Below, one piece after another: positions 1-32,703 of a stretch of DNA of 64,000 nucleotides. Source of the stretch: Thermodesulfobacteriota bacterium (GTDB taxonomy: Bacteria; Desulfobacterota; Desulfobacteria; Desulfobacterales; Desulfosudaceae); contig JBFMDX010000001.1 in assembly GCA_040753795.1 (NCBI GenBank), forward strand, positions 558,001 to 622,000. Reading direction: 5' to 3'. A program made the translations under genes and the position numbers. The notes under the pieces were generated by a model that saw nothing but the letters and a program-made list of their open reading frames with translations, was not told where the DNA came from and ran no database searches. How positions within the stretch are numbered: position 1 is the first letter of the stretch; every line of letters starts with the position of its first letter.

Positions 1-842
<842 letters not shown>

Positions 843-910
843 TTGAAACGCTCTGGTCATGGCGGCAGGTGAGTGACGTCGCCAATCAGCCCGGCCTGCC
901 ACAAGACGTA

Positions 911-949
911 AAAAGGCCCCGGAGAAAATTTCTCCGGGGCCTTTTTTTT
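911..949 (+). terminator. Rho-independent terminator after katG
   Basis: Near-perfect hairpin: GGCCCCGGAGA pairs with TCTCCGGGGCC across a short AT loop, followed by a run of T. The A-run on the other side makes it potentially bidirectional, so it may also end the convergent minus-strand operon whose last gene stops at 977. Confidence 0.92.
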
Positions 950-976
950 ATTGGCATGCCTGTGAATAGATGACGA

Positions 977-3187: not shown

Positions 3188-3190
3188 CTG

Positions 3191-4144: not shown

Positions 4145-4168
4145 GTTGATGTCCTGCCGGGAAGCGGG

Positions 4169-5263
4169 TTACCGCCGGTCGGATGATGTGAGTACCCGGC
4201 ATAAATAATGAAGATTGAATCCGTCATGGTCCATCTCGAGAACGTCAACCCGGTCAAATCCGGCCTCTTTCAGCATTTTCTCGGCCTGTTCCCGGCCCCA
4301 CATCATGCCCAGGCCGGCGCCGTTGTCGTAAAGGCCGATGGGCAGGCAGTGCATGAGGCTTACCGTGTACAGAAAAGACCCCATGGGATGGCCCAGGTTG
4401 TCGGCCGGATCCGAGAAGGCCTTGATATCCACCATGGAAAAAAGGCCGCCCGGCGCCAGCATGTGCCGGACGCCTTTAAGCGCATCCAGGGGCCGGCGCT
4501 GGTCGTGAATGGCGTCAAAGGCGCAGACATAGTCATATTGCCGGTAAAACGCGGGGTCGCCGTCGATGGCGGCGGCGTCAAACAGACGGTATTCCACATT
4601 GGACAGCCCCATCTGTCGGGCCGCGGCCCCGGCCCGGCGGATGGCTTCCTCATGGTTGTCGATGCCCGCAAACCGGCTCCGGGGAAAGGCCCTGGCCATG
4701 AGGTTTGTCGCCACCCCCTGGCCGCAGCCCAGGTCGCAAACCCGGATGCCATCGGCCAGCCGGCCCAGAAGGCGGCCGTTGTCCACCCCGGGCAGAAATT
4801 TCTGAATCAGCACCTGCTCATGCTTGGCGTCCGCCAGCTGGCCCATGAATTCCTGGAAATCCGGGTACTGGGAAAAAGGGACCCCTTCCCCGGTCTGAAA
4901 GGCCCTGGTCACCGCCTCCATGGCGCAGCAGGTCAGCAGGGGGATCTCCTGGGTATACACCCCCAGGTTGCTGCCGCCGGACTTGCGCGTCAGGAAGGCC
5001 GCGTTTTCCTCCGGCAGAAAGTAAAGGTTGTCGCCGCCCGGCGATTTTGACAATTCCACGATGTGGCCGGTGGCCATGATCCCCAGCCATTCCCGGACAT
5101 AACGGCCGTCAAGACCGGCCGCGGCGGCAATGTCCGACACGGCCGCCGGCCGGTTTAAATTCGCCATGACATCGAAAACCCGGTTCTTGTAACCAATGGC
5201 CATGGCCAGGTTCAGGGCGCCATAATTGAGAATCTCGGCCATTTTCTGCGAAAAGTCGGTCAT
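4169..5263 (-). CDS. Winged-helix/class I SAM-dependent methyltransferase
   Basis: 364 residues when started at the ATG at 5263. A longer frame runs to 5428 but would overlap the whole tail of the upstream lipoprotein gene and begins with unrelated sequence, so the short start is preferred although no clear Shine-Dalgarno is seen. The N-terminal 90 residues (ILNYGALNLAMAIGYKNRVF, then a recognition-helix-like GLDGRYVREWLGIM) look like the winged-helix dimerisation domain of small-molecule methyltransferases. Motif I is VCDLGCGQGVATNLMA. This architecture occurs in O-methyltransferases and in Rv2258c-like proteins. Second gene in a methyltransferase pair upstream of the Mo/W oxidoreductase. 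Confidence 0.85.
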   Translation of the reverse strand: MTDFSQKMAEILNYGALNLAMAIGYKNRVFDVMANLNRPAAVSDIAAAAGLDGRYVREWLGIMATGHIVELSKSPGGDNLYFLPEENAAFLTRKSGGSNLGVYTQEIPLLTCCAMEAVTRAFQTGEGVPFSQYPDFQEFMGQLADAKHEQVLIQKFLPGVDNGRLLGRLADGIRVCDLGCGQGVATNLMARAFPRSRFAGIDNHEEAIRRAGAAARQMGLSNVEYRLFDAAAIDGDPAFYRQYDYVCAFDAIHDQRRPLDALKGVRHMLAPGGLFSMVDIKAFSDPADNLGHPMGSFLYTVSLMHCLPIGLYDNGAGLGMMWGREQAEKMLKEAGFDRVDVLEMDHDGFNLHYLCRVLTSSDRR

Positions 5264-5282
5264 GTCGTTTTTGTAAATGTAT

Positions 5283-5732
5283 TTATTTTGCGTTGGTGTA
5301 CGTCGTTGTTTCATACCCCCAGCGGACGCCGCAATGCGGACAGGTGTCCCCGACTTTCGAACTGTTTGACACCCGGTTTCCGCAGGCACTGCAACTTTTT
5401 GAAATGAGCGTAGTCGATGAGCCGACATTGAAGGTCAGATCCTCCGGATCAAAAGGCAGGGGGTTGCCGTTTTTGTCGAGGGTGGCCTTCTCATCCAGGT
5501 AGCCTGCCTCGACCAGCTCTTCCAGTGATTCCGGGTTGCGGTTGTTCTCGAGAGCAAACGCCGAGCCGGCGGCGTCAATGACTTTCTGTTTGGCCTTTAT
5601 TTCGGCGGCATCGATTTTTCCCTGCAGCAGGGTCAGGGACGCGCCTTCCTCTTTCCCGCAGGAACTCATTGATAACAGGGCAATGAAGGCAATTGATATC
5701 CGCAGAAACCATAAAATGGATTTTCTGACCAT
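5283..5732 (-). CDS. Lipoprotein with C-terminal zinc ribbon, function unknown
   Basis: 149 residues. A type II signal peptide (FLRISIAFIALLSMSSCG) ends in a lipobox with Cys25 as the expected lipidated residue. The middle is helical and pilin-tail-like (ALENNRNPESLEELVEAGYL), and the C-terminus has two CxxC pairs (CSACG and CPHCG) separated by 14 residues, a zinc-ribbon pattern. Zinc ribbons are mostly cytoplasmic, so one on an exported lipoprotein is uncommon. The gene lies 12 bases after the FadH-like gene and 19 bases before the methyltransferase start, so it is embedded in the operon. No function is assigned. Confidence 0.75.
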   Translation of the reverse strand: MVRKSILWFLRISIAFIALLSMSSCGKEEGASLTLLQGKIDAAEIKAKQKVIDAAGSAFALENNRNPESLEELVEAGYLDEKATLDKNGNPLPFDPEDLTFNVGSSTTLISKSCSACGNRVSNSSKVGDTCPHCGVRWGYETTTYTNAK

Positions 5733-5744
5733 ACCGTTTCCTCT

Positions 5745-7748
5745 CTAAACCTTCAGGCCGGCTTCGAACCCCTCGAAAACCGCGTCCGAGATTTTCCTGG
5801 GCGCTTTGGCGTCGCCGATGACAATGGTATCAATCCCGAGCGCTTTACCTTGCGCGGAAAGGGTATCGTTCGGTTTCGCGCCCAGCGCCAGGATGACGGT
5901 GTCGGCCGGAATGTTTTTCCGTTCTTCACCGGCCTGAACGATCACCGCGTCATCGGTTATCTCCACCAGTCTGGTGCCCGGCATCATGGTCACGTCGCTC
6001 AGTTTCAAACTTTTCACCAGAACCCACCGGCTGGTGCGTCCGACATTGGCGGCCAGGCGGTCAACCATATCGATCACCGTAATTTTTTTCCCGGTTTTAT
6101 GCATCAGGGCGTTTAAGATCTTTTCATCTTCGGCGTGGTGGTACATCAGAAAAGCGCACGTCGCGGCGTCGGGCGCGCCGAGGGCCGCGACAAAATGGGC
6201 GGTTTCACACCCGGTGGCGCTGCCGCCGATAATGACGACGTTTTCACCGATGTCCCACACTTTTTCAGACAACACGTCCCAGGCGCTGACCACATGGGGC
6301 TTGTCAATTCCGGGAACGTTGACTTCAACGGGTTTTGCCCCGGTGGCCACAACCAGGAGGTCGGGCCTGACGGCGGTAAGCGTTTCCCGGTCAAGGGGGG
6401 TGTTAAGCCTGATTCGCACCCCGGCTTTTTTCATCCGTTTTTCGAGGCTTTTAATAATGTTGCCGATTTCTTCCTTGCCCGGGGACGCCTTGGCCAGGTT
6501 GACCTGTCCGCCCAGTTTGTCTCCGGATTCGTACAGGGTGACCTGATGGCCCCGGCTGGCGGCCATGACGGCAAACTCCATGCCCGCCGGCCCGCCGCCG
6601 GCGACGGCTATGGTTTTAGGCCGCCCGGCCGGTTGGATGGTAAATTCAGCCTCCCTGCCGGCCATGGGGTTTAAAACACAGCAGACCGGGGCGCCGGTGA
6701 TGATCTGGTCGAAACAACCCTGGTTGCAGGCGATGCAGGGCGTTATCTCGTCAAACCGTTTCTGCCTGACCTTATTGGGCAGTTCCGGGTCGGCGATCAG
6801 CGGCCGGCCCCAGCAGACCATGTCGCAGGATCCGTCCCTTAAGGCTTTTTCCGCCACATCCGGATTGCCCAGCCGGTTGGAGGCGAAAACCGGAACGGAG
6901 ACGCTTTCTTTGATGCCCCGGGCAAGATAGACAAACGCGCCCGGCGGCACCGGGGTCGTCAGCTGGGGGATATACGTCTCATGCCAGCCGCCGGTCACGT
7001 TGATCGCGTTTACCCCGGCTTTTTCCGCTTCAGCGGCAAACAGGGCGGCTTCCCGGTTGGTGTTTCCGCCGTCCATGAAATCGTTTCCGGCGATGCGGAT
7101 GCCCAGGGGCATGCCATTCCCGACCGCCTCCCGGACGCCCCGGATGACTTCAAGGCCGAAACGCATCCTGTTCTCAAGGCAGCCGCCGTATTCGTCGGTC
7201 CGGACATTGGTCAGGGGGGACAAAAACTGGCTGATCAGATACCCGGTGCAGCCGATGATCTCGATAAAATCAAACCCGGCCTCCCTGGCCCGCGCGGCGG
7301 CCCGGGCGAAATGGTCGATGACCATGAGGATATCGTCCCTGGTCATTTCCCTGGGCGCCTGCCGGTTCATTTTCCCGGGAATGGGAGACGGCGCGATGGC
7401 CTCTTCCCCGTTAAAGAGAATCGCGTTGCGGCCCATGTGCATGAGCTGGATGGCGACCCTGGCGGCTGTCGTCCGATGAATTTCATCGATGAATTCCTTA
7501 AACGGGGGGATCTGGCCGTCTTCGAACAGGCCCGGCATGACCGGCGACATGCACTGGGTGTCGATGGCCACCGGGCCGATGGTCATCAGCCCGACGCCGC
7601 CCAGCGCCCGCGCGCGGTAAAACGCCTTGACCCGGTCGTTTAAGGAAAAATCATAGGTATAACCGAGCCCCATGGACGGCATGACGATCCGGTTGGGTAT
7701 GGTCAGGCCGTTTATCGTTAGGGGTGAAAAAAGTTTCTGGTGTTCCAT
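5745..7748 (-). CDS. NADH:flavin oxidoreductase / 2,4-dienoyl-CoA reductase-like (FadH family)
   Basis: 667 residues from the ATG at 7748, which has GGAG eight bases upstream; an earlier ATG at 7778 lacks this. Domain order is that of FadH: an FMN-binding TIM barrel (residues 1-340, starting LFSPLTINGLTIPNRIVMPS), a [4Fe-4S] site (CIACNQGC plus a later CC in APVCCVLNP), then FAD/NAD(P)-binding Rossmann folds with AVAGGGPAGMEFAVMA and VVIIGGSATGCETAHF. Length equals the family norm of about 670. Such enzymes reduce conjugated C=C bonds of enoyl thioesters, trimethylamine or cyclic enones. The adjacent enoyl-CoA hydratase supports an acyl-CoA substrate. Confidence 0.92.
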   Translation of the reverse strand: MEHQKLFSPLTINGLTIPNRIVMPSMGLGYTYDFSLNDRVKAFYRARALGGVGLMTIGPVAIDTQCMSPVMPGLFEDGQIPPFKEFIDEIHRTTAARVAIQLMHMGRNAILFNGEEAIAPSPIPGKMNRQAPREMTRDDILMVIDHFARAAARAREAGFDFIEIIGCTGYLISQFLSPLTNVRTDEYGGCLENRMRFGLEVIRGVREAVGNGMPLGIRIAGNDFMDGGNTNREAALFAAEAEKAGVNAINVTGGWHETYIPQLTTPVPPGAFVYLARGIKESVSVPVFASNRLGNPDVAEKALRDGSCDMVCWGRPLIADPELPNKVRQKRFDEITPCIACNQGCFDQIITGAPVCCVLNPMAGREAEFTIQPAGRPKTIAVAGGGPAGMEFAVMAASRGHQVTLYESGDKLGGQVNLAKASPGKEEIGNIIKSLEKRMKKAGVRIRLNTPLDRETLTAVRPDLLVVATGAKPVEVNVPGIDKPHVVSAWDVLSEKVWDIGENVVIIGGSATGCETAHFVAALGAPDAATCAFLMYHHAEDEKILNALMHKTGKKITVIDMVDRLAANVGRTSRWVLVKSLKLSDVTMMPGTRLVEITDDAVIVQAGEERKNIPADTVILALGAKPNDTLSAQGKALGIDTIVIGDAKAPRKISDAVFEGFEAGLKV

Positions 7749-7821
7749 CTTCGCTCCGATCACCGGTTCATGCGCCAAACCCTCCCGGCAGCGGACCTTC
7801 GCCGCTTTTCATCCGGGGTGA

Positions 7822-8595
7822 TTATTTTTTTATCAATTTTTTAAAATCCGGCTTCCGCTTTTCCAGAAAGGCCATGACCGCCTCGGTGTTTTCCGGGCTT
7901 CCCGCCTGCCGGCTCATGGCATCGTGCTCGGCGTCCAGGGCCGCCCGGATACCGGCTTTATGCATCACGTTCAGGCAGCGCTTGGTCTCTTTTAAGGCGT
8001 TGACCGGCCACTGCGCGATTTCCGTTGCCTTCTCAAGGGCCGTGGACAGAAGTTCGGCGTTACCGCATCTGGCCCTGGCGATTCCGCAGGCCACGGCTTC
8101 ATCGGCGTCGATCCACTTGGAACTCAACAGGATTTCGGCCGCCCGCTGGGTCCCGATCCTGGCCTGCAGCATATACGTGCTGGCGAACTCGGGGGCCATG
8201 CCCAGGCTGGTAAACGGCACCCGCAGGCGCAGGCTTTCTCCCACATAGAGCACATCACAGAAGAACAATATGGTGGCCCCGCCGCCGACAGCCACCCCGG
8301 TGGCCGCCCCGATGAGCGGCTTGTCGAATTCAATCACGGCGTCCTCGCCCGTTCGGTAGGATGCGCCACCGCCTCCGGGCAGGCTTTTACTGTCGGATAA
8401 ATCCTGACCGGAACTGAAATTATTCCCGGCGCCGGTGATCACCACCACGTTGACGTCATCGTTCTTTCTGGCCTCGGCCAGGGCATCGGCAAACGCCTGC
8501 CATTGTTCGGCGTTAAAGGCGTTTTTCTTGTCCGGCCGGTTCAAGGTCAAAACCAGCACCCCATCTTTCAGTTCTTTTAAAACCGTATCGCTCAT
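7822..8595 (-). CDS. Enoyl-CoA hydratase/isomerase (crotonase family)
   Basis: 257 residues from the ATG at 8595, preceded by AGGAAG; an upstream in-frame start would overlap the preceding ferredoxin gene. The crotonase oxyanion-hole segments are visible: NNFSSGQDLSDSK at about residue 60 and PLIGAATGVAVGGGATILFF at about residue 100. The usual first catalytic Glu of true hydratases appears replaced in LGMAPEFASTYM, where Glu is offset, so isomerase or other crotonase chemistry is equally possible. It sits between a ferredoxin-like gene (28-base gap) and the FadH-like gene (73-base gap), all on the minus strand, consistent with an acyl-CoA pathway operon. Confidence 0.9.
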   Translation of the reverse strand: MSDTVLKELKDGVLVLTLNRPDKKNAFNAEQWQAFADALAEARKNDDVNVVVITGAGNNFSSGQDLSDSKSLPGGGGASYRTGEDAVIEFDKPLIGAATGVAVGGGATILFFCDVLYVGESLRLRVPFTSLGMAPEFASTYMLQARIGTQRAAEILLSSKWIDADEAVACGIARARCGNAELLSTALEKATEIAQWPVNALKETKRCLNVMHKAGIRAALDAEHDAMSRQAGSPENTEAVMAFLEKRKPDFKKLIKK

Positions 8596-8623
8596 CTTGT
8601 TTTCTTCCTTTCTCGAAAAGTCT

Positions 8624-9871
8624 TCAGCGGCGGGCCCGCCAGGCATTCAGGGAGCTCCGCAGCAGGTTGGGCGTCAGCCGGGCGCCCAGGGCCACATAGC
8701 CTCCGGGCGGTTTCCTGTATTCCTTCACCGGCTCCATTGCTATGGCCCGGGCCTTGTCGCAGGCCACCACGCACTGACCGCAGCCCACGCAGCGCTTCAG
8801 GTCATGATGGTGGGTTTTGTTCCGGGTGTCCACGGTGATGGCCCCCATGGGGCAGCGGAGGGCGCATTTGGCGCAGTGGTTGCACGTTTTCATGTCAAAC
8901 ACCGGCAGGTATCGCGGCGGCGCGATCATGGCCGGCATGTTGTACTGGGTGACGGTCTTCATCATATGGCAGCAGCAGCCGCAGCAGGAGCAGGACGAAC
9001 TGCCGTGCTTGCCGGATTCTTCATTGAAGATCCAGCTGACCAGACCGGCCTGTTCGGCCTGCCGCTTGATCTCCACCGCCTCCTTTTTTTCGATGATCCG
9101 CGCCTTCCCGGCCCTGGCCAGAACATTGACAACGCCTTCTCCGAACATCACGCAGTTTTCCAGCGGCCGTCCGCACCCCCGGCCGGCCAGAATTTCGGTC
9201 ATGCCGCACTGGCACATGGTCACGCCGAAGGTCTTATAGCGGTCCATGATCTCCTCCAGTCGGTCCGAAGGCAGGGCGAGTTGCTGCGCTTCAATGGCGT
9301 GATGGGCGGGAAGATACCGCACGGCGGGCAGGTCGTACTTGAGATAATCGGTCAGGTATCCGGTTTCCACCAGGCGCTCGAACAGTTCGGCAAAACGGCG
9401 CTGCCAGTCGGACAGATTCTCCATGGACGTGGCCATCATCACCGCCTCGAAGGTGCCGGGCAGAATGGGCATGACCGTGTATTTGCGCTTCGGACCGTCG
9501 CCCATGGCCAGGAGAATGAATTTTTCGCGGCTTAAACGGTCCAGGACCTTCCGCGCGTCCTCCACCGGTCGATGACTGGCTTTGGCGGCTTTTTCGGCGG
9601 TCATCCGCATCATGGGCTTGAAATGCCGCACGATATCGGCCTCTTCCTCCGTGAACATGTGCATGATCAGATCCATCAGTTCGTCACAGACGGGCGGCCC
9701 GGCCAGAAGGGGGCTGGCATAGAGCCTGGCCGTTTCCCGAAAAGCTTCGGCAACGTCCGGGTAGGCGCCGAGAGGTTTGATCCTGAGGCTTTTGGTCAGC
9801 GGGGGCTTGGGCCCGACAATGCCCTGGTTGATCTGGATGATGGTGGTGGCCTTTGATTTTTTTTCCGTCAT
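8624..9871 (-). CDS. Cys-rich 2x[4Fe-4S] ferredoxin-like protein with N-terminal helical/winged-helix module
   Basis: 415 residues. Residues 60-150 form a winged-helix-like module (MFTEEEADIVRHF, then EKAAKASHRPVEDARKVLDR). A Cys-dense middle follows: CQCGMTEILAGRGCG, then LENCVMFG, then the cluster CSCCGCCCHMM. The C-terminus is a bacterial-type ferredoxin domain with two cluster motifs, CNHCAKCALRCP and CVGCGQCVVACD. The plus-strand gene at 11747 is a paralogue sharing all these elements. First gene of the minus-strand run that continues through the crotonase and FadH-like enzyme, so it may carry electrons for them. No catalytic activity is established; the middle cysteines could bind a further cluster. 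Confidence 0.85.
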   Translation of the reverse strand: MTEKKSKATTIIQINQGIVGPKPPLTKSLRIKPLGAYPDVAEAFRETARLYASPLLAGPPVCDELMDLIMHMFTEEEADIVRHFKPMMRMTAEKAAKASHRPVEDARKVLDRLSREKFILLAMGDGPKRKYTVMPILPGTFEAVMMATSMENLSDWQRRFAELFERLVETGYLTDYLKYDLPAVRYLPAHHAIEAQQLALPSDRLEEIMDRYKTFGVTMCQCGMTEILAGRGCGRPLENCVMFGEGVVNVLARAGKARIIEKKEAVEIKRQAEQAGLVSWIFNEESGKHGSSSCSCCGCCCHMMKTVTQYNMPAMIAPPRYLPVFDMKTCNHCAKCALRCPMGAITVDTRNKTHHHDLKRCVGCGQCVVACDKARAIAMEPVKEYRKPPGGYVALGARLTPNLLRSSLNAWRARR

Positions 9872-10027
9872 GAAATCCTCTCAAAAGATTAAGGGATAGG
9901 GATTAGATCCTGCTTTCCGTGCTTTCTGGGCTATCATCTATAACAGGGCCGGTCCCCGGGTGTCAATGTAATCGCGGGAGCCGGCGGAACGATATTTTTC
10001 ATGGAAGCGAGGATTGCAAAAAGACCG

Positions 10028-11386
10028 TTATGTCTGAATTTTTTCGGCCGTTATCCACTCCAGAACATCATCCAGCCTGGAAAGGAAGTAGTAGGGGATG
10101 GAACCCAGATAATAGGTTTTACCGGCGTCCGTTGTGACCGTATCCACGCGCGGCGGGCCGGCGTAAACCCTCAAGGCATAGGGATGCGGCGATGCTTCCA
10201 TGAACAGATTCAGGGATTTCAGGCGTCCGGTTTTGCCGCTCTTTACTTCGATGGGAATGACCATGTCTTTAAAAACGTAGATGAAATCCGTTTCCGCGGC
10301 TCCGGTCTCCCGAATCCAGAATTGCAGTGACGGCGCCTGGAAAGACCGGGCCGCGATTTCCTGGGCCGTCACTTGTTCGGCGATCTTGCCCTGATAGACC
10401 CGATCCAGGGATTGCTGCTCGAAAAAGGTCGTCAGTCCTGCCCGGAAGTTGACCAGACCGGTATCCAGAAAATAGAGGCGGGGAGCCTTTCGCAGCTTCT
10501 CCACGACCGGCAGGCGGGTGGAGACGGAAGGACGGGCTCGGTACACGATCAGGGCCTGCTCCAGCACGTCAAAGGCCGTCTTCATTTCCCGCGACCGGAA
10601 AGCCGACTCCCCGAACTTTTCATAGGTGATCCGTTGACCGGCATAAAGCGGCGCCCGGTCGATGACATGAGTCAGGTATTTGGCCGCGGCTAAATTCGAA
10701 TATTTTTCGACATCCTCGATATAACCCATAAAGATGTCGTCATGAATTTTCCGGGCGGCGGCGTACGAGCCGGATTCCGCGAACGCGGCCAGGGCTTCCG
10801 GCATGCCGCCGACAAAGGCATAGGTATTGAAAGCCTCCAGCAGAAGATCGTGATTCGGCGAAGCCGCGAACGGATCCAGGGAAAAAAGATGGCCGGCCAG
10901 GACGGAATTTTTCGCCCGCAGATATTCTCCGAAAGTGACCGGGAACAGGAAGAGGTTCCGGACCCGGCCGACGGGAAAGGAGAATCCCTCCCGGTTTGAA
11001 AAAACTTCCAGCAGCGACCCGGCGGCGATGACGTGAAGACCGGTGGTGTCTTCATGCAGGTATCGCAGGGAGCGAACCGCTTCCGGTGAATGCTGGATTT
11101 CATCGATGAACAGCAGATCCCGGCCCGGAATGATCTCATGCCCCCGGTAAAGACCGATCCGTTCCACCAGCTCCCGGCCGCTGTTCCAGCCTGAAAAAAG
11201 CTCCCGCTCCCGTGGCCTTTCCAGGTTCAGCTCGATCAGGTGGTCAAAGCCGCCGGCCAGTTGACGTACCGCAAAGGTTTTCCCCACCTGCCGGGCTCCC
11301 CGCAAAACCAGGGGCTTACGGTCGGCGTCTTTTTTCCAGCATTGAAGTTCGGAATCAAGATCACGACTAAAAATCATTTTTGCCAC
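10028..11386 (-). CDS. AAA family ATPase with DUF4143 C-terminal domain
   Basis: 452 residues from a GTG at 11386, or 449 from the in-frame ATG at 11377. Walker A is LRGARQVGKTFAVRQL and Walker B LLFIDEIQHSPEAVRSLRYL, the AAA_14 arrangement. The C-terminal half ends in a restriction-endonuclease-like stretch (AETDFIYVFKDMVIPIEVKS) that defines DUF4143. Such genes are widespread, often singletons and frequently gained by transfer; their cellular role is not known. It lies between two divergent paralogous ferredoxin genes and its 5' flank is unusually AT-rich, which suggests insertion into an older cluster. Confidence 0.9.
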   Translation of the reverse strand: MAKMIFSRDLDSELQCWKKDADRKPLVLRGARQVGKTFAVRQLAGGFDHLIELNLERPRERELFSGWNSGRELVERIGLYRGHEIIPGRDLLFIDEIQHSPEAVRSLRYLHEDTTGLHVIAAGSLLEVFSNREGFSFPVGRVRNLFLFPVTFGEYLRAKNSVLAGHLFSLDPFAASPNHDLLLEAFNTYAFVGGMPEALAAFAESGSYAAARKIHDDIFMGYIEDVEKYSNLAAAKYLTHVIDRAPLYAGQRITYEKFGESAFRSREMKTAFDVLEQALIVYRARPSVSTRLPVVEKLRKAPRLYFLDTGLVNFRAGLTTFFEQQSLDRVYQGKIAEQVTAQEIAARSFQAPSLQFWIRETGAAETDFIYVFKDMVIPIEVKSGKTGRLKSLNLFMEASPHPYALRVYAGPPRVDTVTTDAGKTYYLGSIPYYFLSRLDDVLEWITAEKIQT

Positions 11387-27043: not shown

Positions 27044-27136
27044 GGAGAGATGGCCGAGTAGGTCGAAGGCGCTCGCCTGCTAAGCGAGTGTGCGGTGAAA
27101 GCTGCACCATGGGTTCGAATCCCATTCTCTCCGCCA
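27044..27136 (+). tRNA. tRNA-Ser (anticodon GCT); attachment site of the integrated element
   Basis: Acceptor GGAGAGA pairs with TCTCTCC, then G and encoded CCA. Anticodon loop CTGCTAA lies between CTCGC and GCGAG; a long variable arm marks tRNA-Ser. It lies 18 bases after the other tRNA-Ser, probably on the same transcript. Its last 14 bases are part of the 21-bp repeat that flanks the mobile element, and the tRNA stays intact. Confidence 0.96.
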
Positions 27137-27143
27137 TTTTTAT
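27123..27143 (+). repeat. attL: 21-bp direct repeat at the tRNA 3' end
   Basis: Starts CATTCTCTCCGCCA (tRNA T stem, acceptor and CCA) and runs seven bases into the flank. Identical over all 21 bases to the copy at 32681-32701. Confidence 0.93.
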
Positions 27144-27189
27144 TTTTAAGGCGTGTAATTTCAGATAATTAGAAAATTGTATTTCCAGG

Positions 27190-27215
27190 ATATGCCATAA
27201 GGTATGCCATAAAAC
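27190..27215 (+). promoter_or_regulatory. Putative integrase arm-type sites, left end
   Basis: Two tandem copies of TATGCCA spaced 11 bases (ATATGCCATAAGGTATGCCA), 47 bases inside attL. A matching tandem pair with the same spacing occurs near the other end at 32530-32552. Paired short repeats inside both attachment ends are what a tyrosine integrase binds with its N-terminal domain; assignment is by position and symmetry. Confidence 0.55.
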
Positions 27216-27254
27216 AAAGTGCTGTGGTGCCTTTTTAGCCCGTCCCTTTTCGAG

Positions 27255-27773
27255 CTATTTTACCTTAACCGGTAAGAACACGCATCGGCAATCTTCACAT
27301 GCTGGAATCAAGTAAAGGGCTTGATCAAGCGGGTACGGGCCTTCTCTTGCCAGCTTTTTACATTCTTCACACACATCATCATCTTCCATCGTTATCCACT
27401 CTGCCATAACGTCGATTTTATCAATATTCCAGTTCTTATAATTCTTTATCAGTTCTTTATGATGGGGCTGAATAAGCCCTGGCCGCCCCATAGCTTCGGT
27501 CCGCCGCATCCCGGCAACAAAACGCTTGTTAATTTCCTGCATCGGGACTTCCGGTAATAGCCCGGCCACAATCTTTGTGATTTTATCTTCAACAACTGCC
27601 CGGCTGACTCCCGGCTCTAAAACTTTCGATGCAAGGGATTTTCCAATAAGCAAGCTGGTGCTATCGCCTGTGACTTGTTTCTCGCCGGAGACAAGCGATT
27701 TACTATTTTCATCTTTGACAGCTCTGCCAAGCAGCATATTCAATATTCCCTTAATTTTGCCAATCTTTTTCAT
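27255..27773 (-). CDS. Head-morphogenesis-like fragment (SPP1 gp7 / Mu gpF C-terminal motif)
   Basis: 172 residues. The C-terminal segment, DDVCEECKKLAREGPYPLDQ followed by IPACEDCRCVFLPVK, keeps the Cys pattern of phage minor head proteins (C-x2-C ... C-x2-C-R-C). The roughly 200-300 residues that normally precede it are replaced by a short helical N-terminus. It therefore looks like a trimmed, stand-alone version of the domain. In a satellite it could redirect capsid assembly or packaging of a helper phage. Last gene of the element's operon, 60 bases after terS. Confidence 0.65.
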   Translation of the reverse strand: MKKIGKIKGILNMLLGRAVKDENSKSLVSGEKQVTGDSTSLLIGKSLASKVLEPGVSRAVVEDKITKIVAGLLPEVPMQEINKRFVAGMRRTEAMGRPGLIQPHHKELIKNYKNWNIDKIDVMAEWITMEDDDVCEECKKLAREGPYPLDQALYLIPACEDCRCVFLPVKVK

Positions 27774-27833
27774 GCTCCCCCCTTATTGTAGCGTTATGGG
27801 TCTATCAAGCCCCTGTCCTGTCCATGGCGTATA

Positions 27834-28217
27834 TTACGCTTTGTCATCTTCATAAACAACTTTGATCAACACCTCTCCTGAAGACTCCGGCTTTCCCGTG
27901 AACATGCCCAGGTGTTTCCCCAGCAGCTCAAGACCTTTCAACGTCGCGCCGAAATTGTTTGACGCTTCAGCCTTTGAGATAACCCGCATAATATCCATAA
28001 CGACTTGATCCGCTGTAATTTGCGTTCGTTGCTGCTGCTCTGTTTGTGCTCTCTCTATGGCCTTTTTAATTACAAGTTTTTGCATGTTCTCTTGACCTAT
28101 GCGGCCGGCCGTTTTTTTTGAGTATCCGGCCCGGATCGCCGCTTGCGTTGCGTTCAGGTCAATCAGATACTCATTGACAAATTTTTGTTGCTTGGCTGTG
28201 AGTTTTGTCTCTTGCAT
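27834..28217 (-). CDS. Terminase small subunit
   Basis: 127 residues from the ATG at 28217, with AAAGGAG five bases upstream; a GTG two codons earlier overlaps that site. The N-terminus KLTAKQQKFVNEYLIDLNAT followed by AAIRAGYSKKTAGRIGQENM is the typical DNA-binding domain of Terminase_2-type small subunits, and the middle is helical. No large-subunit gene accompanies it. A solitary small terminase in a satellite usually retargets a helper phage's packaging motor to the satellite's own pac or cos site; that function is inferred here. Confidence 0.9.
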   Translation of the reverse strand: MQETKLTAKQQKFVNEYLIDLNATQAAIRAGYSKKTAGRIGQENMQKLVIKKAIERAQTEQQQRTQITADQVVMDIMRVISKAEASNNFGATLKGLELLGKHLGMFTGKPESSGEVLIKVVYEDDKA

Positions 28218-28223
28218 ACTCAC

Positions 28224-28379
28224 TCCTTTTGTTGCGGTGTCTGGCTTTCATTGTGCTGGATGATCCGATTCCGGCCCCAGGTCCTGGAGTAGTCGTTTTA
28301 TAATAACTCCGCCCCTGACAACATCGGCCGGAACAATATCTTTTTTCGTTTAATGGAGTTAGTTCTCATCTCTTTTCCC
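28224..28379. other. Spacer between terS and the iteron-like array
   Basis: About 155 bases without a gene, holding the AAAGGAG site of terS. No clear promoter or packaging-site consensus could be read. As the DNA next to terS it is a reasonable place to look for a packaging recognition site. Confidence 0.35.
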
Positions 28380-28497
28380 TGTCCGGTTTTTGTCCGGTTT
28401 TCTGTCCGGTTCCGTACGATTTGTCCGATTTGGTCCGTCCGTCCTGTCCGGTTTTTCTTTAGAAAACCGGACGGACAGGACACCGGACAGCCGGACG
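28380..28497. repeat. Iteron-like array, candidate replication origin of the element
   Basis: Direct copies of GTCCGGTTTT or close variants start at 28381, 28392, 28404, 28423 and 28446, at about one or two helical turns from each other. Inverted copies (AAAACCGGAC at 28463, CACCGGAC at 28481, GCCGGAC at 28490) follow. The block lies between terS and the last codon of the primase-helicase gene. Iterons beside a rep/primase gene are the usual layout of a replication origin in plasmids and satellites. The central inverted pair could also act as a terminator for the primase transcript. Confidence 0.65.
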
Positions 28498-30324
28498 TTA
28501 AACCTGGTAAACATGGTTGTCCTTCACGTGAAATTGTCCCTTTACTTCGTGAAATCTGTTGCGTGGAATACCCGCTTGGATACAGGCGGATTTCCAGGCA
28601 TCGAATAAAACACCATCGACACCCTCGGACAATTCGTCATACAGGCGGTCAAGTTCGGCTTTTGCGGTTTTCTGCCATTTGCCGGATTTCGGTTTACAGA
28701 TTGACGGTGGCTTGAAGTCTACCAGATCCAGGACGGCGGACGTTATCGGCTCGCTATCTTCATCAACCATGCCCAGGTCAACCGTCCTGATCTGGAAGGC
28801 CATAGGGTCCGGGCGTTCGTGTTCCTTTATCTTCGAACAATACAGGCGGACGGTTCCGAAGGGATCAACTTCTAATCGGTATTCGGCATCAAGCGCACCC
28901 TTTAGCGCCATCGACCCCCGGCCCCTGGACTTGTCGCCATGGCCGGTATGGTGGATCAACAGGATTGCCGCCCTGGTCTGTTCGCGGATCATGTCAACCG
29001 CCGATATAAAGGCCGTCATATCCTTGGTGCTGTTTTCATCACCCGGCCCGAAGTTACGCGCCACGGTATCAACTATGATCAAAACAGGGGTTCCGTCTTT
29101 TTCCGAGACGGTGTTGATAGCATCCAGGACGGTTTTTAAAAACTCGGCATCCGATAACGCCGCGTTGCCGGTTGAAACAAAAACTGGGGCATCTTTTAAA
29201 CTTACCTGATGCCTGATTTCCCAGGCCGTAAAGCGCCGCCGTAAACCGTTCCAACCTTCGCCAGCGATATAAACAACAGGCCCCTGTTTAACAGGCATTC
29301 CATGAAAGGATATCCCGGCGGATACGCATCCAGCAAGATCGATAGATAGAAGGGATTTGCAACTTTCCGGATCGCCATAGAATTGCGCTAAGCTGTCAAC
29401 TTCGATAAAGCGCTTAACCAACCAGTCCGGCCGTCGGGTTTCGATTTCTGATAGACGTATCAAGCTAAATCCGCCGAGCTCTTTTTTCTCTGGCTCCGGC
29501 TGATAGGTCCGGGCATTGTCGGCGATATACTGATTGATCCGTTTCGCGTCCCATCCTTCGACCTCGGCGTCGGCCAGGTCCCAGCCTTTTACAGCATCTG
29601 CCGGTGGCGTCACCACGGCCACGGTCGCGGCCCCTGCCTGAATTGCGGCCTGTTTGACGGCCTCTGCGGCCTCCCTGCCTGGTTCGTCGGCGTCCGGCCA
29701 TATAAACACCAACCGCCCGTTTATTTTCGTCCAGTCGCCCTTTGAGACGGCTTTACAGCCGCCCGGCCAGGTGATGACGGTCCAGTCATCGCCCAGCAGA
29801 CGGGATGCCGCATCACAAGCTTTTTCGCCTTCGACAACAACAACAGGCTTTCCCGGATTACTGGCCAGCTTATCTATATTGTATAATGTCCGTGGCTGCG
29901 GTGCTGCCCCTGATTTCCATCGGTCTCCATCTTTTTTGAAAAAAGGAATAACGATTTTATCTTTACCGTCATCATACCGGGCAACGTAGCCGATAACATC
30001 GCCGGTCGCATTTTTATACTCCCATGAAGCTGTGAAAGATTTATCACTCCATTGCCCAGGAACCCCCTGCGGTCTTGAAGTGTCAGAACGGTGGTCGTCA
30101 GATGGCCATAAGCCGCGCGATTTCAAGGATGCAACAACTTCATTCTGTGGGCACCCGGCCTGACACTTTACGAGCAATTTACCGCTTTTGACAGCTATCG
30201 AAAGGGACGGGTTTTTATCATCGTGGCATGGACAATGACACATTGCCCCGGTGCCGCTCTGCTTACCGCCAAGCCCTTTGATCATGTTGTCAATTATGGC
30301 TGGATTTAAGGCTTTCTCAAGCAT
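28498..30324 (-). CDS. Primase-helicase: zinc finger, TOPRIM and RepA-type ATPase
   Basis: 608 residues from the ATG at 30324, preceded by GGGAGG. Domains in order: a CHC2-like zinc finger (CHCPCHDDKNPSL, then LLVKCQAGCP), a TOPRIM domain (PVVVVEGEKACDAASRLL, and the Asp pair in FIWPDADEPG), and a hexameric RepA/KaiC-type ATPase. In the ATPase, Walker A reads FYGDPESCKSLLSIDLA and Walker B VLIIVDTVARNFGPGD, followed by ILLIHHTGHGDKSRGRGSMA. The Walker A has Cys where Gly is usual before Lys-Ser. The protein probably replicates the element from a nearby origin, much as alpha of P4 does. It overlaps the upstream gene by 8 bases. Confidence 0.9.
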   Translation of the reverse strand: MLEKALNPAIIDNMIKGLGGKQSGTGAMCHCPCHDDKNPSLSIAVKSGKLLVKCQAGCPQNEVVASLKSRGLWPSDDHRSDTSRPQGVPGQWSDKSFTASWEYKNATGDVIGYVARYDDGKDKIVIPFFKKDGDRWKSGAAPQPRTLYNIDKLASNPGKPVVVVEGEKACDAASRLLGDDWTVITWPGGCKAVSKGDWTKINGRLVFIWPDADEPGREAAEAVKQAAIQAGAATVAVVTPPADAVKGWDLADAEVEGWDAKRINQYIADNARTYQPEPEKKELGGFSLIRLSEIETRRPDWLVKRFIEVDSLAQFYGDPESCKSLLSIDLAGCVSAGISFHGMPVKQGPVVYIAGEGWNGLRRRFTAWEIRHQVSLKDAPVFVSTGNAALSDAEFLKTVLDAINTVSEKDGTPVLIIVDTVARNFGPGDENSTKDMTAFISAVDMIREQTRAAILLIHHTGHGDKSRGRGSMALKGALDAEYRLEVDPFGTVRLYCSKIKEHERPDPMAFQIRTVDLGMVDEDSEPITSAVLDLVDFKPPSICKPKSGKWQKTAKAELDRLYDELSEGVDGVLFDAWKSACIQAGIPRNRFHEVKGQFHVKDNHVYQV

Positions 30325-30778
30325 AAAGCACCTCCCGGCTACTGCACCCCTCGGGAGCAACTTTCCGCCTGCCAGATGCCTCTATACGGCCCGTATCAGC
30401 CTTTAAATTTGAAATTCTGAAATGATGCAGAGGACAGTCCGACAGATGGCACCGCCGGACCTCAAGCCGCTGCCCTGCAACACACCATCCACAAAAATCA
30501 CGGATGGCCTTATCTCTGGCCTTTGGTGACTGTTTGCCTCTGCCTGTCCTGAAATGATGGAGAGCACATCCTTGCCGCGTACAGTCTCGGACCTCATCCC
30601 GGATGCCCCCGGAACAGTCCGCGCACCTTGCCTTGATGGCCTGCCGTCTGTTGAGTTTTACAGGAGAGATTTCTTGACTGGATGAAACGGTGTTGATATA
30701 TTTTTTTTTGTAAACTTCTCTTATTACTCCGGCTGTGGCTGGCAGGCCATGGCCGGAGACAAGCCCGGCGTTATTCAT
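30317..30778 (-). CDS. Cys-rich protein with two zinc-finger-like repeats, phage/ICE-associated family
   Basis: 153 residues from the ATG at 30778, which overlaps the alpA stop (ATGA). Two homologous motifs are seen: KARCADCSGGIRDEVRDCTR followed by QGCALHHFR, and RDFCGWCVAGQRLEVRRCHL followed by SDCPLHHFR. The pattern C-x2-C-x8-C-x4-C-x-L-x-x-[FY]-R occurs in small proteins encoded by phages and integrative elements. Each repeat probably binds a metal ion; function unknown. It lies between alpA and the primase gene and overlaps both, so it belongs to the replication/regulation operon. Confidence 0.8.
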   Translation of the reverse strand: MNNAGLVSGHGLPATAGVIREVYKKKYINTVSSSQEISPVKLNRRQAIKARCADCSGGIRDEVRDCTRQGCALHHFRTGRGKQSPKARDKAIRDFCGWCVAGQRLEVRRCHLSDCPLHHFRISNLKADTGRIEASGRRKVAPEGCSSREVLYA

Positions 30779-30966
30779 GACGCCCTCCTTTCCGGAGAGC
30801 GCTCTCCCTCCCATTTTTCCAAATTACACAACCGCCACCGGGTACAGCCTGAAGACAGCTTTACCGGAGCCGGAAAGTTGCCCTCCCGGACCCACCTCCA
30901 TACTGTACCGCGATCAACACCATAACGTTCTCCCACTTGCCGATCTGACAAAAACAGATTCTCCAT
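30775..30966 (-). CDS. alpA: AlpA-family excisionase/transcriptional regulator
   Basis: 63 residues with an excellent AAAGGAGG Shine-Dalgarno six bases before the ATG. The MerR-like winged helix is clear: FLSDRQVGERYGVDRGTVWR then WVREGNFPAPVKLSSGCTRW. Such proteins activate int or act as excisionases in P4-like elements, and AlpA is the master regulator of Gram-negative PICIs. A hairpin (30981-31003) and the two long repeats lie immediately upstream and are likely its control region. Confidence 0.9.
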   Translation of the reverse strand: MENLFLSDRQVGERYGVDRGTVWRWVREGNFPAPVKLSSGCTRWRLCNLEKWEGERSPERRAS

Positions 30967-30980
30967 TGGAGACCTCCTTT

Positions 30981-31003
30981 GTCAGGCCACAAAAAAGCCT
31001 GAC
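30981..31003. promoter_or_regulatory. Inverted repeat in the alpA leader
   Basis: GTCAGGC and GCCTGAC separated by nine bases, directly before the alpA ribosome-binding site. It could be an operator or an RNA hairpin in the leader. The half-site TCAGGCaaaa also occurs in the downstream long repeats, suggesting the same binding protein. Confidence 0.5.
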
Positions 31004-31033
31004 CGCTAAAGACGAGAATACCCGTCCATGCAG

Positions 31034-31211
31034 CCAGGCTGATTAGGTGAGCAGAGTCAGATTTTGCCTGACCCCAACCTATCTCACCACTTTCGGCAGT
31101 GATTTTTATTTTCCTGTCATAAACTTCCAGGCTGATTAGGTGAGCAGAGTCAGATTTTGCCTGACCCCAACCCATCTCACCACTTTCGGAAGTTTTTTAT
31201 TTTCCTACCAT
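31034..31211. repeat. Two tandem 85-bp direct repeats between alpA and int
   Basis: Copies at about 31034-31120 and 31127-31211, offset by 93 bases, nearly identical from CCAGGCTGATTAGGTGAGCA to TTTTCCT. Each holds GTCAG-ATTTTGC-CTGAC and GGTGAG...CTCACC inverted pairs. They fill the space between the alpA leader and the integrase stop. Likely roles are regulatory sites for AlpA or a second replication or recombination locus. Only two copies, so not a CRISPR. Confidence 0.75.
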
Positions 31212-31261
31212 AAAAATTTAAACTAAATTTAAGCAAAGATCAATATAAAAAAAACAAGATG

Positions 31262-32488
31262 CTATTTTTTCGCACCAATAGCCACTATCTGACCACCTGA
31301 GCCCTCCGCCCTCTGCTTATCGCAGTAGTCACTCCATGACTGCATGAGCCGCCGCCGCTTATCCAGCAGATCACCGCGCCGATATGCGGCCTCAACTTTT
31401 GACTCAATGGCATGGCCTAAAGACTGTTCGCAGACCTCCCTTGCATAGTTCGTCTGTTCGGCTGACCAGTCCCGGAAAGTGGACCGGAACCCATGAGGCA
31501 CCGCGTCAACTTTCATCCCCCGGCATACCTCCAGCAGAGCCATATCTGATAATGGTTTGTTTTTGCTGTTCGGAAAAATAAAGTCACACTCGGGGAAACG
31601 CGGTGTTGACTTCAACAGTTTCATGGCCTGTTTTGATAACGGTATCACATGCTCTTTTTTCGTTTTTGTTCTCTCTGCTGGTATAGTCCAGACGTTGCCG
31701 TCTATCTCTGACCACTTGGCACCGCGCGCCTCTCCAGACCGGCAGGCGGTCAATATTACGAATTCCAGGCACCGCGCCGATATGCCCGGACGGACCCGGA
31801 GTTTTTCAATAAAGCCGTTTATCTCTGAATATGGCAGAGCAGGCATATGCCGGACCCGTTTTATTTTTGTGGGCTTTGGCAGTAATGCCTCCAGGTATCC
31901 TTTCCACCGAGCGCAATTATCAGTGGAGCGGTGTCCTGATATGATGGCCCAGTCAATGATATTTTCTATCCTCTGCCGGAGCCGTGTCGCCGTCTCCGTC
32001 TTTTCCTCCCATATCGGCCGGAGAATTGACAGGACATGCTCCAGGGCGATCTCTTCCACGGACATGTCACCTATCACCGGATAGGCATAATTGGCCACCG
32101 ATGAGAGCCAGTCTCCGGCATGTTTTTCGTTTCTGAATTCCGACCGTTTCTTTTCAAAGCAGGCCTCCGCCGCCTCCCGGAAGGTCATTCCAGAGGCCCG
32201 GAGAGCCCTCTGCCGCGCTTTTTTTGCTTGGATAGGGTCAATGCCCTGGTGTATCTGATCCCGTGCCGCTCGTGCCCTCTCTATGGCCTGCGAAAGGGTC
32301 ACGGCAGGATAACCTCCCAGGCCGATGCACCGCCGCCGATCACCCACCATGACCCGGAGGACCCATGACTTGGCACCACTGGGCTTGACCTGTAGCAGGA
32401 GCCCAGGCACCCCTCCGGCTGCATGCGTCCCGGCTTTTGATATCTGTTTGACTCGGAGAGCGGATATCTGTTTAATGCTCTTTGGCAT
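31262..32488 (-). CDS. P4-type tyrosine integrase
   Basis: 408 residues. N-terminal DUF4102 arm-binding domain (GLLLQVKPSGAKSWVLRVMV, then IGLGGYPAVTLSQAIERARA), SAM-like core-binding domain, and catalytic domain with all active-site residues: Arg in TACRSGEARGAKW, Lys in TKTKKEHVIPL, HxxR in VPHGFRSTFRDW, His in SLGHAIESK and nucleophile Tyr in VEAAYRRGD. P4-type integrases mostly target tRNA 3' ends, matching the tRNA-Ser junction. Located at the attR end; it should catalyse integration and, with AlpA, excision. Confidence 0.96.
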   Translation of the reverse strand: MPKSIKQISALRVKQISKAGTHAAGGVPGLLLQVKPSGAKSWVLRVMVGDRRRCIGLGGYPAVTLSQAIERARAARDQIHQGIDPIQAKKARQRALRASGMTFREAAEACFEKKRSEFRNEKHAGDWLSSVANYAYPVIGDMSVEEIALEHVLSILRPIWEEKTETATRLRQRIENIIDWAIISGHRSTDNCARWKGYLEALLPKPTKIKRVRHMPALPYSEINGFIEKLRVRPGISARCLEFVILTACRSGEARGAKWSEIDGNVWTIPAERTKTKKEHVIPLSKQAMKLLKSTPRFPECDFIFPNSKNKPLSDMALLEVCRGMKVDAVPHGFRSTFRDWSAEQTNYAREVCEQSLGHAIESKVEAAYRRGDLLDKRRRLMQSWSDYCDKQRAEGSGGQIVAIGAKK

Positions 32489-32529
32489 GGTTACACCCCC
32501 TTTTATGAGTTAGGCGGAGACGTTTAGAG

Positions 32530-32552
32530 ATATGCCACTGGATATGCCAAAA
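32530..32552 (+). promoter_or_regulatory. Putative integrase arm-type sites, right end
   Basis: ATATGCCACTGGATATGCCA: two TATGCCA copies spaced 11 bases, just upstream of the integrase start. It mirrors the pair at 27190-27215 near attL. Confidence 0.55.
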
Positions 32553-32680
32553 AAAATAACATCATTTAAGACGGGTTGCAACAGAAAAAAACAGTCTGCT
32601 AAAAATATTTCAATTAAAACAATTAGATTGTGATACTTGATGGAATTGAAGAAAACAGGTAAAAACATGAACTTGGCGGA

Positions 32681-32701
32681 CATTCTCTCCGCCATTTTTA
32701 T
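32681..32701 (+). repeat. attR: 21-bp direct repeat
   Basis: Exact copy of the attL repeat, beginning CATTCTCTCCGCCA, two bases from the stop of the neighbouring permease gene. GGCGGA immediately before it can pair with TCCGCC inside it, forming a small hairpin after the permease gene. Confidence 0.93.
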
Positions 32702-32703
32702 GC

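What the first reader, a model, noticed from the sequence alone, without database searches (positions are those of the whole stretch)
27123..32701. Compact phage-satellite (PICI-like) element with its own terS and a trimmed head-morphogenesis gene
Seen: a perfect 21-bp repeat at both ends, one end in tRNA-Ser(GCT); int, AlpA, primase-helicase, terminase small subunit and a stand-alone Mu gpF/SPP1 gp7-type C-terminal motif, all on one strand in 5.6 kb; no large terminase, portal, capsid or tail gene. Known: int-alpA-primase-terS without structural genes characterises Gram-negative PICIs that hijack a helper phage's packaging. Inference: the element is a mobilisable satellite, possibly redirecting head assembly through the short gp7-like protein, which I do not know from described PICIs.
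Basis: partly seen in the sequence, partly recalled or inferred. Interest (0 to 1): 0.8.

Follow-up and report, generated by a model that had tools for sequence, protein, structure and literature searches.

The report
Tiny phage-satellite with borrowed packaging genes
A complete-looking 5.6-kb mobile element sits at a serine tRNA gene of a bacterium related to sulfate reducers; it has the parts to cut itself out and copy itself but only two virus packaging/head genes, so it probably travels by hijacking a phage, and one of the two (a shortened inner-head protein) was not found described for such hitchhikers in the papers searched.

Summary
A perfect 21-bp repeat (27123-27143, 32681-32701) bounds a 5.56-kb unit at the 3' end of tRNA-Ser(GCT). 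Both same-family genomes held carry the same tRNA pair without the unit. Candidate integrase arm sites lie at both ends and nowhere else in 64 kb, and an iteron array follows the primase, so the mobility parts look complete. Relatives sharing integrase/AlpA or primase carry other small packaging/head sets: TerS; TerS, head protease and tape measure; small terminase and capsid protein; TerL and capsid protein. Best reading: a minimalist satellite that excises via Int/AlpA, replicates from its iterons, steers a helper's terminase with its own TerS, and adds its own MuF to the head. Mobilisation, helper and MuF function are inferred. A decayed prophage or capsid-encoding satellite remains possible. 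It is not a strict PICI (size) nor a PICMI (site, primase, TerS). The stand-alone MuF is the unusual part.

The parts
27044..27136 (+). tRNA-Ser(GCT), integration target, left intact
   Evidence: ARAGORN; Rfam RF00005 62.7 bits (27044-27133)
27123..27143 (.). attL core, 21-bp perfect direct repeat (3' end of the tRNA plus 7 nt)
32681..32701 (.). attR core, second copy of the 21-bp repeat, 2 bp from the stop codon of the flanking ABC permease gene
27189..27209 (+). pair of GRTATGCCA sites, 12-bp spacing: candidate integrase arm-type sites, MuF-side end
   Evidence: only 4 matches in 64 kb; 0 of 100 shuffles reach 4; role inferred
32529..32549 (+). second pair of GRTATGCCA sites, same spacing, int-side end
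   Evidence: role inferred
31262..32488 (-). int, tyrosine recombinase (Arm-DNA-bind_3, Phage_int_M, Phage_integrase)
31034..31203 (.). two 77-bp direct repeats (92% alike, 93-bp spacing) in the int-alpA gap; function not shown
30775..30966 (-). alpA, AlpA-type excisionase/regulator, 63 aa
   Evidence: Pfam PF05930 6.5e-7; phrog_66, phrog_1553
30317..30814 (-). Cys-rich protein, 165 aa, or 153 aa from the internal ATG; no family; related to the protein after int-alpA in L267 (E 5.9e-27)
28498..30360 (-). primase-helicase (AAA_25; primase/helicase PHROGs), 620 aa, or 608 aa from the internal ATG
28378..28496 (.). iteron array immediately 3' of the primase gene: 7 GTCCG, a 15-bp AT-rich gap, 4 CGGAC; putative origin
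   Evidence: 11 in 130 bp, maximum 4 in 300 order-1 Markov simulations of the element
27834..28223 (-). terS, small terminase subunit, full length (54% identical over residues 8-129 to the TerS of viral contig L138)
27255..27773 (-). stand-alone MuF (Mu gpF/SPP1 gp7-like) domain protein, 172 aa, Cys motif kept, long N-terminal part absent

Best explanation
The unit is a minimalist phage satellite, integrated and structurally complete. Shown by sequence: att repeats at tRNA-Ser, candidate arm sites at both ends, int, alpA, primase with adjacent iterons, TerS and a short MuF protein in one unidirectional block. Inferred: when a helper phage infects or is induced, AlpA lets Int excise the element; the primase copies it from the iterons; its TerS binds a site on the element and hands the concatemer to the helper's large terminase, so that helper procapsids are filled with satellite DNA; the short MuF protein joins the helper's portal or the packaged DNA, either standing in for the helper's own gp7-type protein at DNA ejection or keeping it out of the head. 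It belongs to a loose set of satellite-like elements, mostly in the same bacterial order, that share int/alpA or the primase and carry different one- or few-gene head/packaging kits.
For: Empty sites: both same-family genomes held (G001, G002) have the two tRNA-Ser genes between the permease and (by reading) the hydroxyacyl-CoA dehydrogenase gene with no element. Ends: arm-site pairs at both ends, 0 of 100 shuffles reach the count. Origin-like array directly after the primase. Genes look intact: TerS aligns to its best relative over residues 8-129 of 129, the four best int matches in other genomes cover residues 1-391 to 1-405 of 408, and muf has its own Shine-Dalgarno-like AAGGGGGGAG. Relatives with att repeats: L264 (G276, tRNA-Ala, 16 bp, 10.0 kb: int, alpA, primase), L270 (G087, tRNA-Ser(GGA), 16 bp, 10.7 kb: int, alpA, primase-like), G361:C148 (tRNA-Ala, 15 bp, 16.3 kb: int 55%, alpA, DnaB, TerS, head protease, tape measure, no TerL/portal/capsid found), L282 (viral contig, tRNA-Ser(TGA), 16 bp, about 10.1 kb: int 45%, alpA, primase, TerL, capsid protein, no portal or tail found). 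Without att repeat found: L276 (int, alpA, primase/helicase, TerS) and L038 (int, alpA, primase 52%, small terminase, capsid protein). TerS resembles solved small terminases (3zqp E 3.6e-17) and the MuF's best phage hit is annotated SPP1 gp7 family; SPP1's module is gp1-gp2-gp6-gp7 (PMC6316719 passages). terS and muf share a lower GC (0.464, 0.447) than the other genes (0.526-0.544). In the TerS tree the element's TerS groups with viral contigs (8 rows, 99/98) and that of L276 pairs with the phage L274 (100/99), as expected of separate capture.
Against: No helper, induction, excised form or transfer was or could be observed. No other TerS or MuF match in its genome. No other satellite with a stand-alone MuF was found: the MuF query hit 5 of 389 order genomes and 5 of 216 phylum genomes (own genome counted in both). 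Of the 8 other hits, context was read for 5: TerL and portal stand beside MuF in L052, L054 and L303, portal in L053, and L051 is cut by its contig end. Int of this clade beside AlpA also occurs in a complete P2-like phage, and prim-TerS-TerL in a viral contig (L118), so the backbone is not satellite-specific. Phage cassettes run (TerS)-TerL-portal-MuF (L303), so deletion could give the same order. The RTE motif present in 4 of 4 aligned MuF relatives is RPG here, which could mean loss of function. No att repeat was found for L265, L267, L275 or L276. In 80alpha, single domains of the ejection protein gp44 did not complement (PMC7290940 passages); that gp44 is a gp7-type protein is not stated in those passages.
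Confidence: 0.7

Rival explanations
1. Deletion remnant: a prophage or capsid-encoding satellite (cf-PICI-like) that lost TerL, portal, capsid and the first part of muf in internal deletions, keeping its att ends and early genes by chance; no longer packaged as a unit.
For: Gene order is collinear with a phage cassette (TerS position)-TerL-portal-MuF (L303) and with the capsid-encoding relative L282; MuF lacks its N-terminal part and its conserved RTE motif is altered; no helper or second TerS seen in the genome; same-clade int beside AlpA in a whole P2-like phage.
Against: No gene fragments seen between the att ends; gaps only 60-295 bp; int, alpA, primase and TerS full length; muf has its own ribosome-binding-site-like sequence and an N-terminus without detectable similarity to portal or TerL; one bounded relative, G361:C148, also keeps TerS and two other virion genes without TerL or portal, and L276 and L038 look alike but are not bounded.
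Confidence: 0.22
2. Gram-negative PICI in the strict sense, only small.
For: int, AlpA, replication gene, unidirectional genes, iterons flanking an AT-rich stretch right after the replication gene (criteria read in PMC6092414).
Against: 5.56 kb against the stated 12-15 kb; carries a head-type gene; int clade shared with phages; helper dependence untested.
Confidence: 0.05
3. A decoy or immunity island: the short MuF protein and TerS act in the host cell to spoil packaging by incoming phages rather than to package the element.
For: Phage-derived decoys in defence are general knowledge (recalled, no call); the element has no known defence gene, so an unknown one is possible.
Against: No toxin or effector domain on the MuF protein; excision and replication parts are kept; PADLOC matches are only weak ones to AlpA-type (3.6e-5) and DnaG-like (2.5e-7) models.
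Confidence: 0.03

Closest known systems
PICMI (phage-inducible chromosomal minimalist islands, Vibrionaceae; PMC10803314, passages and section 10 read)
   Same: Size class (5.6 kb here; average 6.7 kb reported for 67 Vibrionaceae elements), order int - alpA - small gene - primase, no capsid-remodelling set.
   Different: Sits at tRNA-Ser, not next to fis; primase is AAA_25 type, not DUF3987/DUF5906; carries TerS and MuF, where PICMI115 has no terS; not in Vibrionaceae.
Gram-negative PICIs (PMC6092414, sections 5, 6, 12, 15, 18 read)
   Same: int, AlpA, replication gene, one transcription direction, iterons around an AT-rich stretch just after the replication gene, no capsid/tail/lysis genes. 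The paper notes that some SaPIs encode their own TerS and that PmCI172 carries a capsid homolog.
   Different: Less than half the size; MuF head-type gene; integrase clade shared with phages; helper biology unknown.
Capsid-encoding satellites (cf-PICI-like; the label is my reading), here L282 and L060
   Same: Related int and AlpA, packaging genes downstream of the primase; L282 also a tRNA-Ser target and the same orientation.
   Different: The window element lacks TerL and capsid protein, and has MuF instead.
SPP1-type packaging/portal module gp1-gp2-gp6-gp7 (PMC6316719, passages)
   Same: TerS resembles solved small terminases of that kind (3zqp; its phage SF6 is recalled) and the last gene is of the gp7/MuF type.
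   Different: gp2 (TerL) and gp6 (portal) are absent and the gp7-like protein lacks about 150 N-terminal residues.

Membership tests
Gram-negative PICI | Conserved organisation: integrase, replication module, master regulator | tested here: met
   int, AlpA, primase-helicase
Gram-negative PICI | Size about 12-15 kb | tested here: not met
   5,558 bp between repeat starts; criterion
Gram-negative PICI | No phage structural or lytic genes | tested here: inconclusive
   No capsid, portal, tail, TerL or lysis gene, but one MuF head-type gene
Gram-negative PICI | att site never used by prophages | tested here: inconclusive
   2 of 2 same-family genomes are empty; int clade found in phages, their sites not examined
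Gram-negative PICI | Unidirectional genes | tested here: met
   all six on the minus strand
Gram-negative PICI | Origin 3' of the replication gene with two iteron sets around an AT-rich stretch | tested here: met
   7 GTCCG / AT-rich / 4 CGGAC at 28381-28496; description; origin function not tested
Gram-negative PICI | Helper-induced excision, interference and packaging | not testable with these tools
   needs a strain, a helper and infection assays
PICMI | int, alpA, prim core | tested here: met
PICMI | Integration next to fis | tested here: not met
   tRNA-Ser(GCT)
PICMI | Primase with DUF3987/DUF5906 | tested here: not met
   AAA_25; neither family listed at E up to 0.1
PICMI | No packaging-redirection genes such as terS | tested here: not met
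   TerS present
Capsid-forming satellite (cf-PICI) | Own TerL, portal and capsid genes (definition recalled) | tested here: not met
   none in the element
MuF / SPP1 gp7 family | Match to the family model | tested here: inconclusive
   TIGR01641 E 0.043, 14.2 bits against a cut-off of 39.65; no Pfam match; tblastn E 3e-5 to an annotated MuF; E 2e-10 to a protein of G532 that Pfam calls Phage_Mu_F
MuF / SPP1 gp7 family | Cys motif and conserved RTE motif | tested here: inconclusive
   Cys-x2-Cys and CRC kept; RTE of 4 of 4 aligned relatives is RPG here

The most novel reading that the evidence does not exclude
A satellite lineage works by swapping single virion parts: each element keeps an excision/replication core and adds its own TerS plus one part that docks on the helper's head or tail. 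Here the part is a trimmed MuF protein that rides on the helper's portal, is packed inside the head and enters the next cell with the satellite DNA (or displaces the helper's own gp7-type protein), giving a 5.6-kb element a packaging and ejection advantage without any capsid remodelling.
Probability: 0.3. Interest if true: 0.78.

Novelty: new variant of a known kind. Interest (0 to 1): 0.55.

Why it matters
If true, it is a satellite smaller than the PICI size range and the PICMI average in the two papers read, yet with its own packaging-specificity gene, in relatives of sulfate reducers (the 20 of 59 papers listed include none on their satellites). It would use a strategy not met in the papers searched: borrowing an inner-head/ejection-type protein instead of capsid or capsid-size genes. 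Its relatives (TerS; TerS, protease and tape measure; small terminase and capsid; TerL and capsid) form a natural series for asking how few virion genes a satellite needs.

Tried and rejected
Searches that led nowhere: MuF protein in genome contigs and viral contigs (0 relatives) and in plasmids (0); Cys-rich protein in viral contigs (0) and only short partial hits in phages (13 records, best E 2e-3); the MuF N-terminal 60 and 80 residues in PHROGs (0 families) and the first 60 in phages (one hit at E 9), tried to see whether the protein is a portal-MuF fusion; solved structures for the MuF alignment (0). The AlphaFold model of MuF from a single sequence was poor (mean pLDDT 46.8) and was not searched or used. 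Promoter- and terminator-like sites were not clearly above shuffles (10 against 5.6, sd 2.7; 9 against 6.2, sd 2.8). TerL in the own genome: three phrog_2 matches at E 1.3e-4 to 2.1e-4 (about 21 bits), taken as chance-level ATPase matches and not followed.

Rejected readings: strict PICI, PICMI and cf-PICI membership (see the tests). A plain prophage was rejected for lack of any TerL, portal, capsid, tail or lysis gene; a deletion remnant could not be rejected. The ORF 30861-31175, which spans the 77-bp repeats in another frame over alpA, was taken as spurious.

Weakness found on the way: my home-made TerL/portal/capsid profiles missed the capsid protein of L038 that Pfam finds, so statements that a relative lacks structural genes rest on the Pfam/PHROG scans of its larger ORFs, not. 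For L276 and L275 only a few ORFs were scanned that way. L037 and L038 are cut by contig ends. L275's excisionase-like gene and L038's partial tRNA were judged by eye. Larger neighbourhoods were fetched for 8 of the 13 TerS places outside the own genome: 3 have TerL beside TerS (L273, L274, L280), 2 show none (L275, L276), 3 were not resolved (L277, L278, L279). One search also fetched 9 integrase neighbourhoods: the best place of each of the eight best other genomes, plus the partial match in G340; of these L268, L269, L271 and L272 gave no bounded element.

Full report
What is there. The window holds a unit of 5.56 kb between two identical 21-bp copies, 27123-27143 and 32681-32701. The left copy ends tRNA-Ser(GCT) (27044-27136); the right copy stops two bases before the stop codon of an ABC permease gene. 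The shuffles expect 0.01 such matches in the window. Six genes fill the unit on one strand: integrase, AlpA, a Cys-rich protein, primase-helicase, small terminase, MuF-like protein. The gaps are 60 to 295 bp, too small for a further large structural gene. Against 50,697 phage records the whole unit gives only short DNA matches, none over 80% of it and most of the listed ones in terS (13 records, 10 shown).

Is it an inserted unit. The permease query matched 12 of 20 relatives, own genome included. Of the 11 other loci, the two from the same family, G001 and G002, carry the tRNA-Ser(GCT)-tRNA-Ser(TGA) pair next to the permease and, by reading, the hydroxyacyl-CoA dehydrogenase gene, and no element; the other nine show no tRNA in the fetched flanks, so synteny is lost or not covered there. 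In both empty sites a PilZ-like gene lies between permease and tRNA; it gives no convincing match in the window, an unexplained difference. Inside the unit, pairs of GRTATGCCA with 12-bp spacing lie 45 bp from the left core and 131 bp from the right core. These are the only four matches in 64 kb, and 0 of 100 shuffles reach four. I read them as integrase arm-type sites; if so, both ends of the element are original ends.

Replication part. Directly after the primase gene lie 7 GTCCG, an AT-rich stretch and 4 CGGAC within 130 bp; the densest 130-bp stretch in 300 order-1 simulations of the element held 4. This is the arrangement described for Gram-negative PICI origins (PMC6092414, section 6). 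Function is untested.

Packaging part. TerS is full length: its best viral-contig relative (L138) aligns over residues 8-129 at 54%, and the best solved structures are small terminases (3zqp E 3.6e-17; that this is the SPP1-like phage SF6 is recalled). The last gene codes for a 172-aa protein with the MuF Cys motif. Support: tblastn E 3e-5 to the annotated MuF of Halorubrum phage Hardycor1; E 2e-10 over residues 39-169 at 25% identity to a place in G532, where Pfam calls the 316-aa ORF Phage_Mu_F (5.3e-10); weak TIGR01641 (E 0.043); no Pfam match of its own. In G532 it stands in the order HTH protein (in the TerS position, not confirmed as TerS)-TerL-portal-56 aa-MuF, and its residues 198-313 match residues 42-158 here. 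So the protein keeps the domain and lacks about 150 N-terminal residues. The RTE motif of 4 of 4 aligned relatives is RPG. terS and muf share a lower GC (0.464, 0.447) than the other four genes (0.526-0.544), as if they came together.

Relatives. The primase query matched 28 of 389 genomes of the order, the integrase 110 of 379, TerS 13 of 379, MuF 5 of 389 and 5 of 216 in the phylum; each count includes the own genome. Three order contigs have the same lengths as contigs titled Desulfobacteraceae (29,591 and 12,413 bases) or Deltaproteobacteria (60,937), which places the order. Elements with att repeats found here: L264 (tRNA-Ala, 16 bp, 10.0 kb), L270 (tRNA-Ser(GGA), 16 bp, 10.7 kb), G361:C148 (tRNA-Ala, 15 bp, 16.3 kb), L282 (viral contig, tRNA-Ser(TGA), 16 bp, about 10.1 kb). 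All four have int at the end far from the tRNA, reading toward it, as in the window. Their payloads differ: L264 and L270 have int, alpA, primase and unknown genes; G361:C148 has TerS, head maturation protease and tape measure, and none of its called ORFs left unscanned exceeds 163 aa; L282 has TerL and major capsid protein, with no portal or tail match. L276 has int-alpA-primase-TerS and L038 int-alpA-primase-small terminase-capsid protein, the latter cut by its contig end; neither gave a convincing att repeat. L267 has int-alpA-Cys like the window, also without att repeat. Against a satellite-only reading, the integrase query matches 13 phage records at 1e-40, and in one of them, the P2-like Acica, whose table I read, int lies beside an AlpA gene; a viral contig has primase-TerS-TerL.

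How it most likely works. Shown: the parts. Inferred: AlpA-dependent excision by Int, replication from the iterons, TerS-directed loading of satellite DNA by a helper's large terminase, and a MuF protein that works at the helper's portal. [quoted passage not shown] The 80alpha ejection protein gp44 acts in survival of injected phage DNA but has no effect on SaPI1 replication or assembly (PMC10541612 and PMC7290940 passages), which warns that satellites may not need such a protein. Why this one would carry a MuF is open.

Satellite or remnant. For a remnant: order collinear with a phage cassette minus TerL and portal, trimmed MuF, altered RTE motif, no homologous helper seen in the genome. For a satellite: complete-looking ends, intact genes, own start signal of muf, no fragments seen, and one bounded relative (G361:C148) that also keeps TerS and two other virion genes without TerL or portal. 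I hold about 0.7 for the satellite and 0.22 for the remnant.

Literature. Searches of the open PMC library for 'phage satellite' with 'MuF' (0 papers) and for 'phage-inducible chromosomal', 'minor head protein', 'satellite' (0 papers) found nothing; none of the 15 listed of 107 papers holds 'SPP1 gp7'. Most subscription papers are not in that library, so this is not proof of absence. PICMI (PMC10803314, passages and section 10) is the nearest published minimal plan; PICMI115 has no terS and sits at fis.

Verdict. Observation confirmed; interpretation partly supported; new variant of a known kind, with the stand-alone MuF and the differing kits of its relatives as the points of interest.

Noticed in passing
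L266 with L283 (G361:C148:53281-69563): A 16.3-kb tRNA-Ala element with TerS, a head maturation protease and a tail tape-measure protein but no TerL, portal or capsid match: a satellite that may act on helper tail length or head maturation.
   Followed up: partly
L282 (IMGVR_UViG_3300032135_000230), 111-10233: Bounded capsid-encoding element at tRNA-Ser(TGA) with TerL and major capsid protein but no portal or tail match.
   Followed up: partly
L038 (G191:C97): int-AlpA-primase-small terminase-HK97-type capsid protein cluster next to what reads as part of a tRNA; no TerL or portal was seen before the contig end, but not all ORFs were scanned.
   Followed up: partly
window 31034-31203: Two 77-bp repeats (92% alike) between int and alpA, each folding into a stem-loop with z-scores of only -2.2 and -1.5; L264, L266 and L267 have a gene in this place instead.
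   Followed up: partly
window 27137-32703 against L127 and L128: Both empty sites carry a PilZ-like gene (name from my reading) between the tRNA and the permease gene that gives no convincing match in the window; insertion or an earlier excision may have removed it.
   Followed up: partly
L004/L053, L005/L054, L287, L288, L289: MuF matches in open frames of 1,557-1,565 residues recur in five genomes with the same matched residues and 29% identity; TerL and portal stand beside it in L054 and portal in L053, the other three were not read: perhaps a widespread phage with a giant MuF protein.
   Followed up: no
L303:11105-12052: The phage muf gene of G532 has a TGA inside the Cys-motif region in an otherwise complete-looking head cassette.
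   Followed up: no
L269 (G022:C8:2170-4453): Two integrase genes of this clade in tandem beside a tmRNA gene, one with an internal stop in the match.
   Followed up: no
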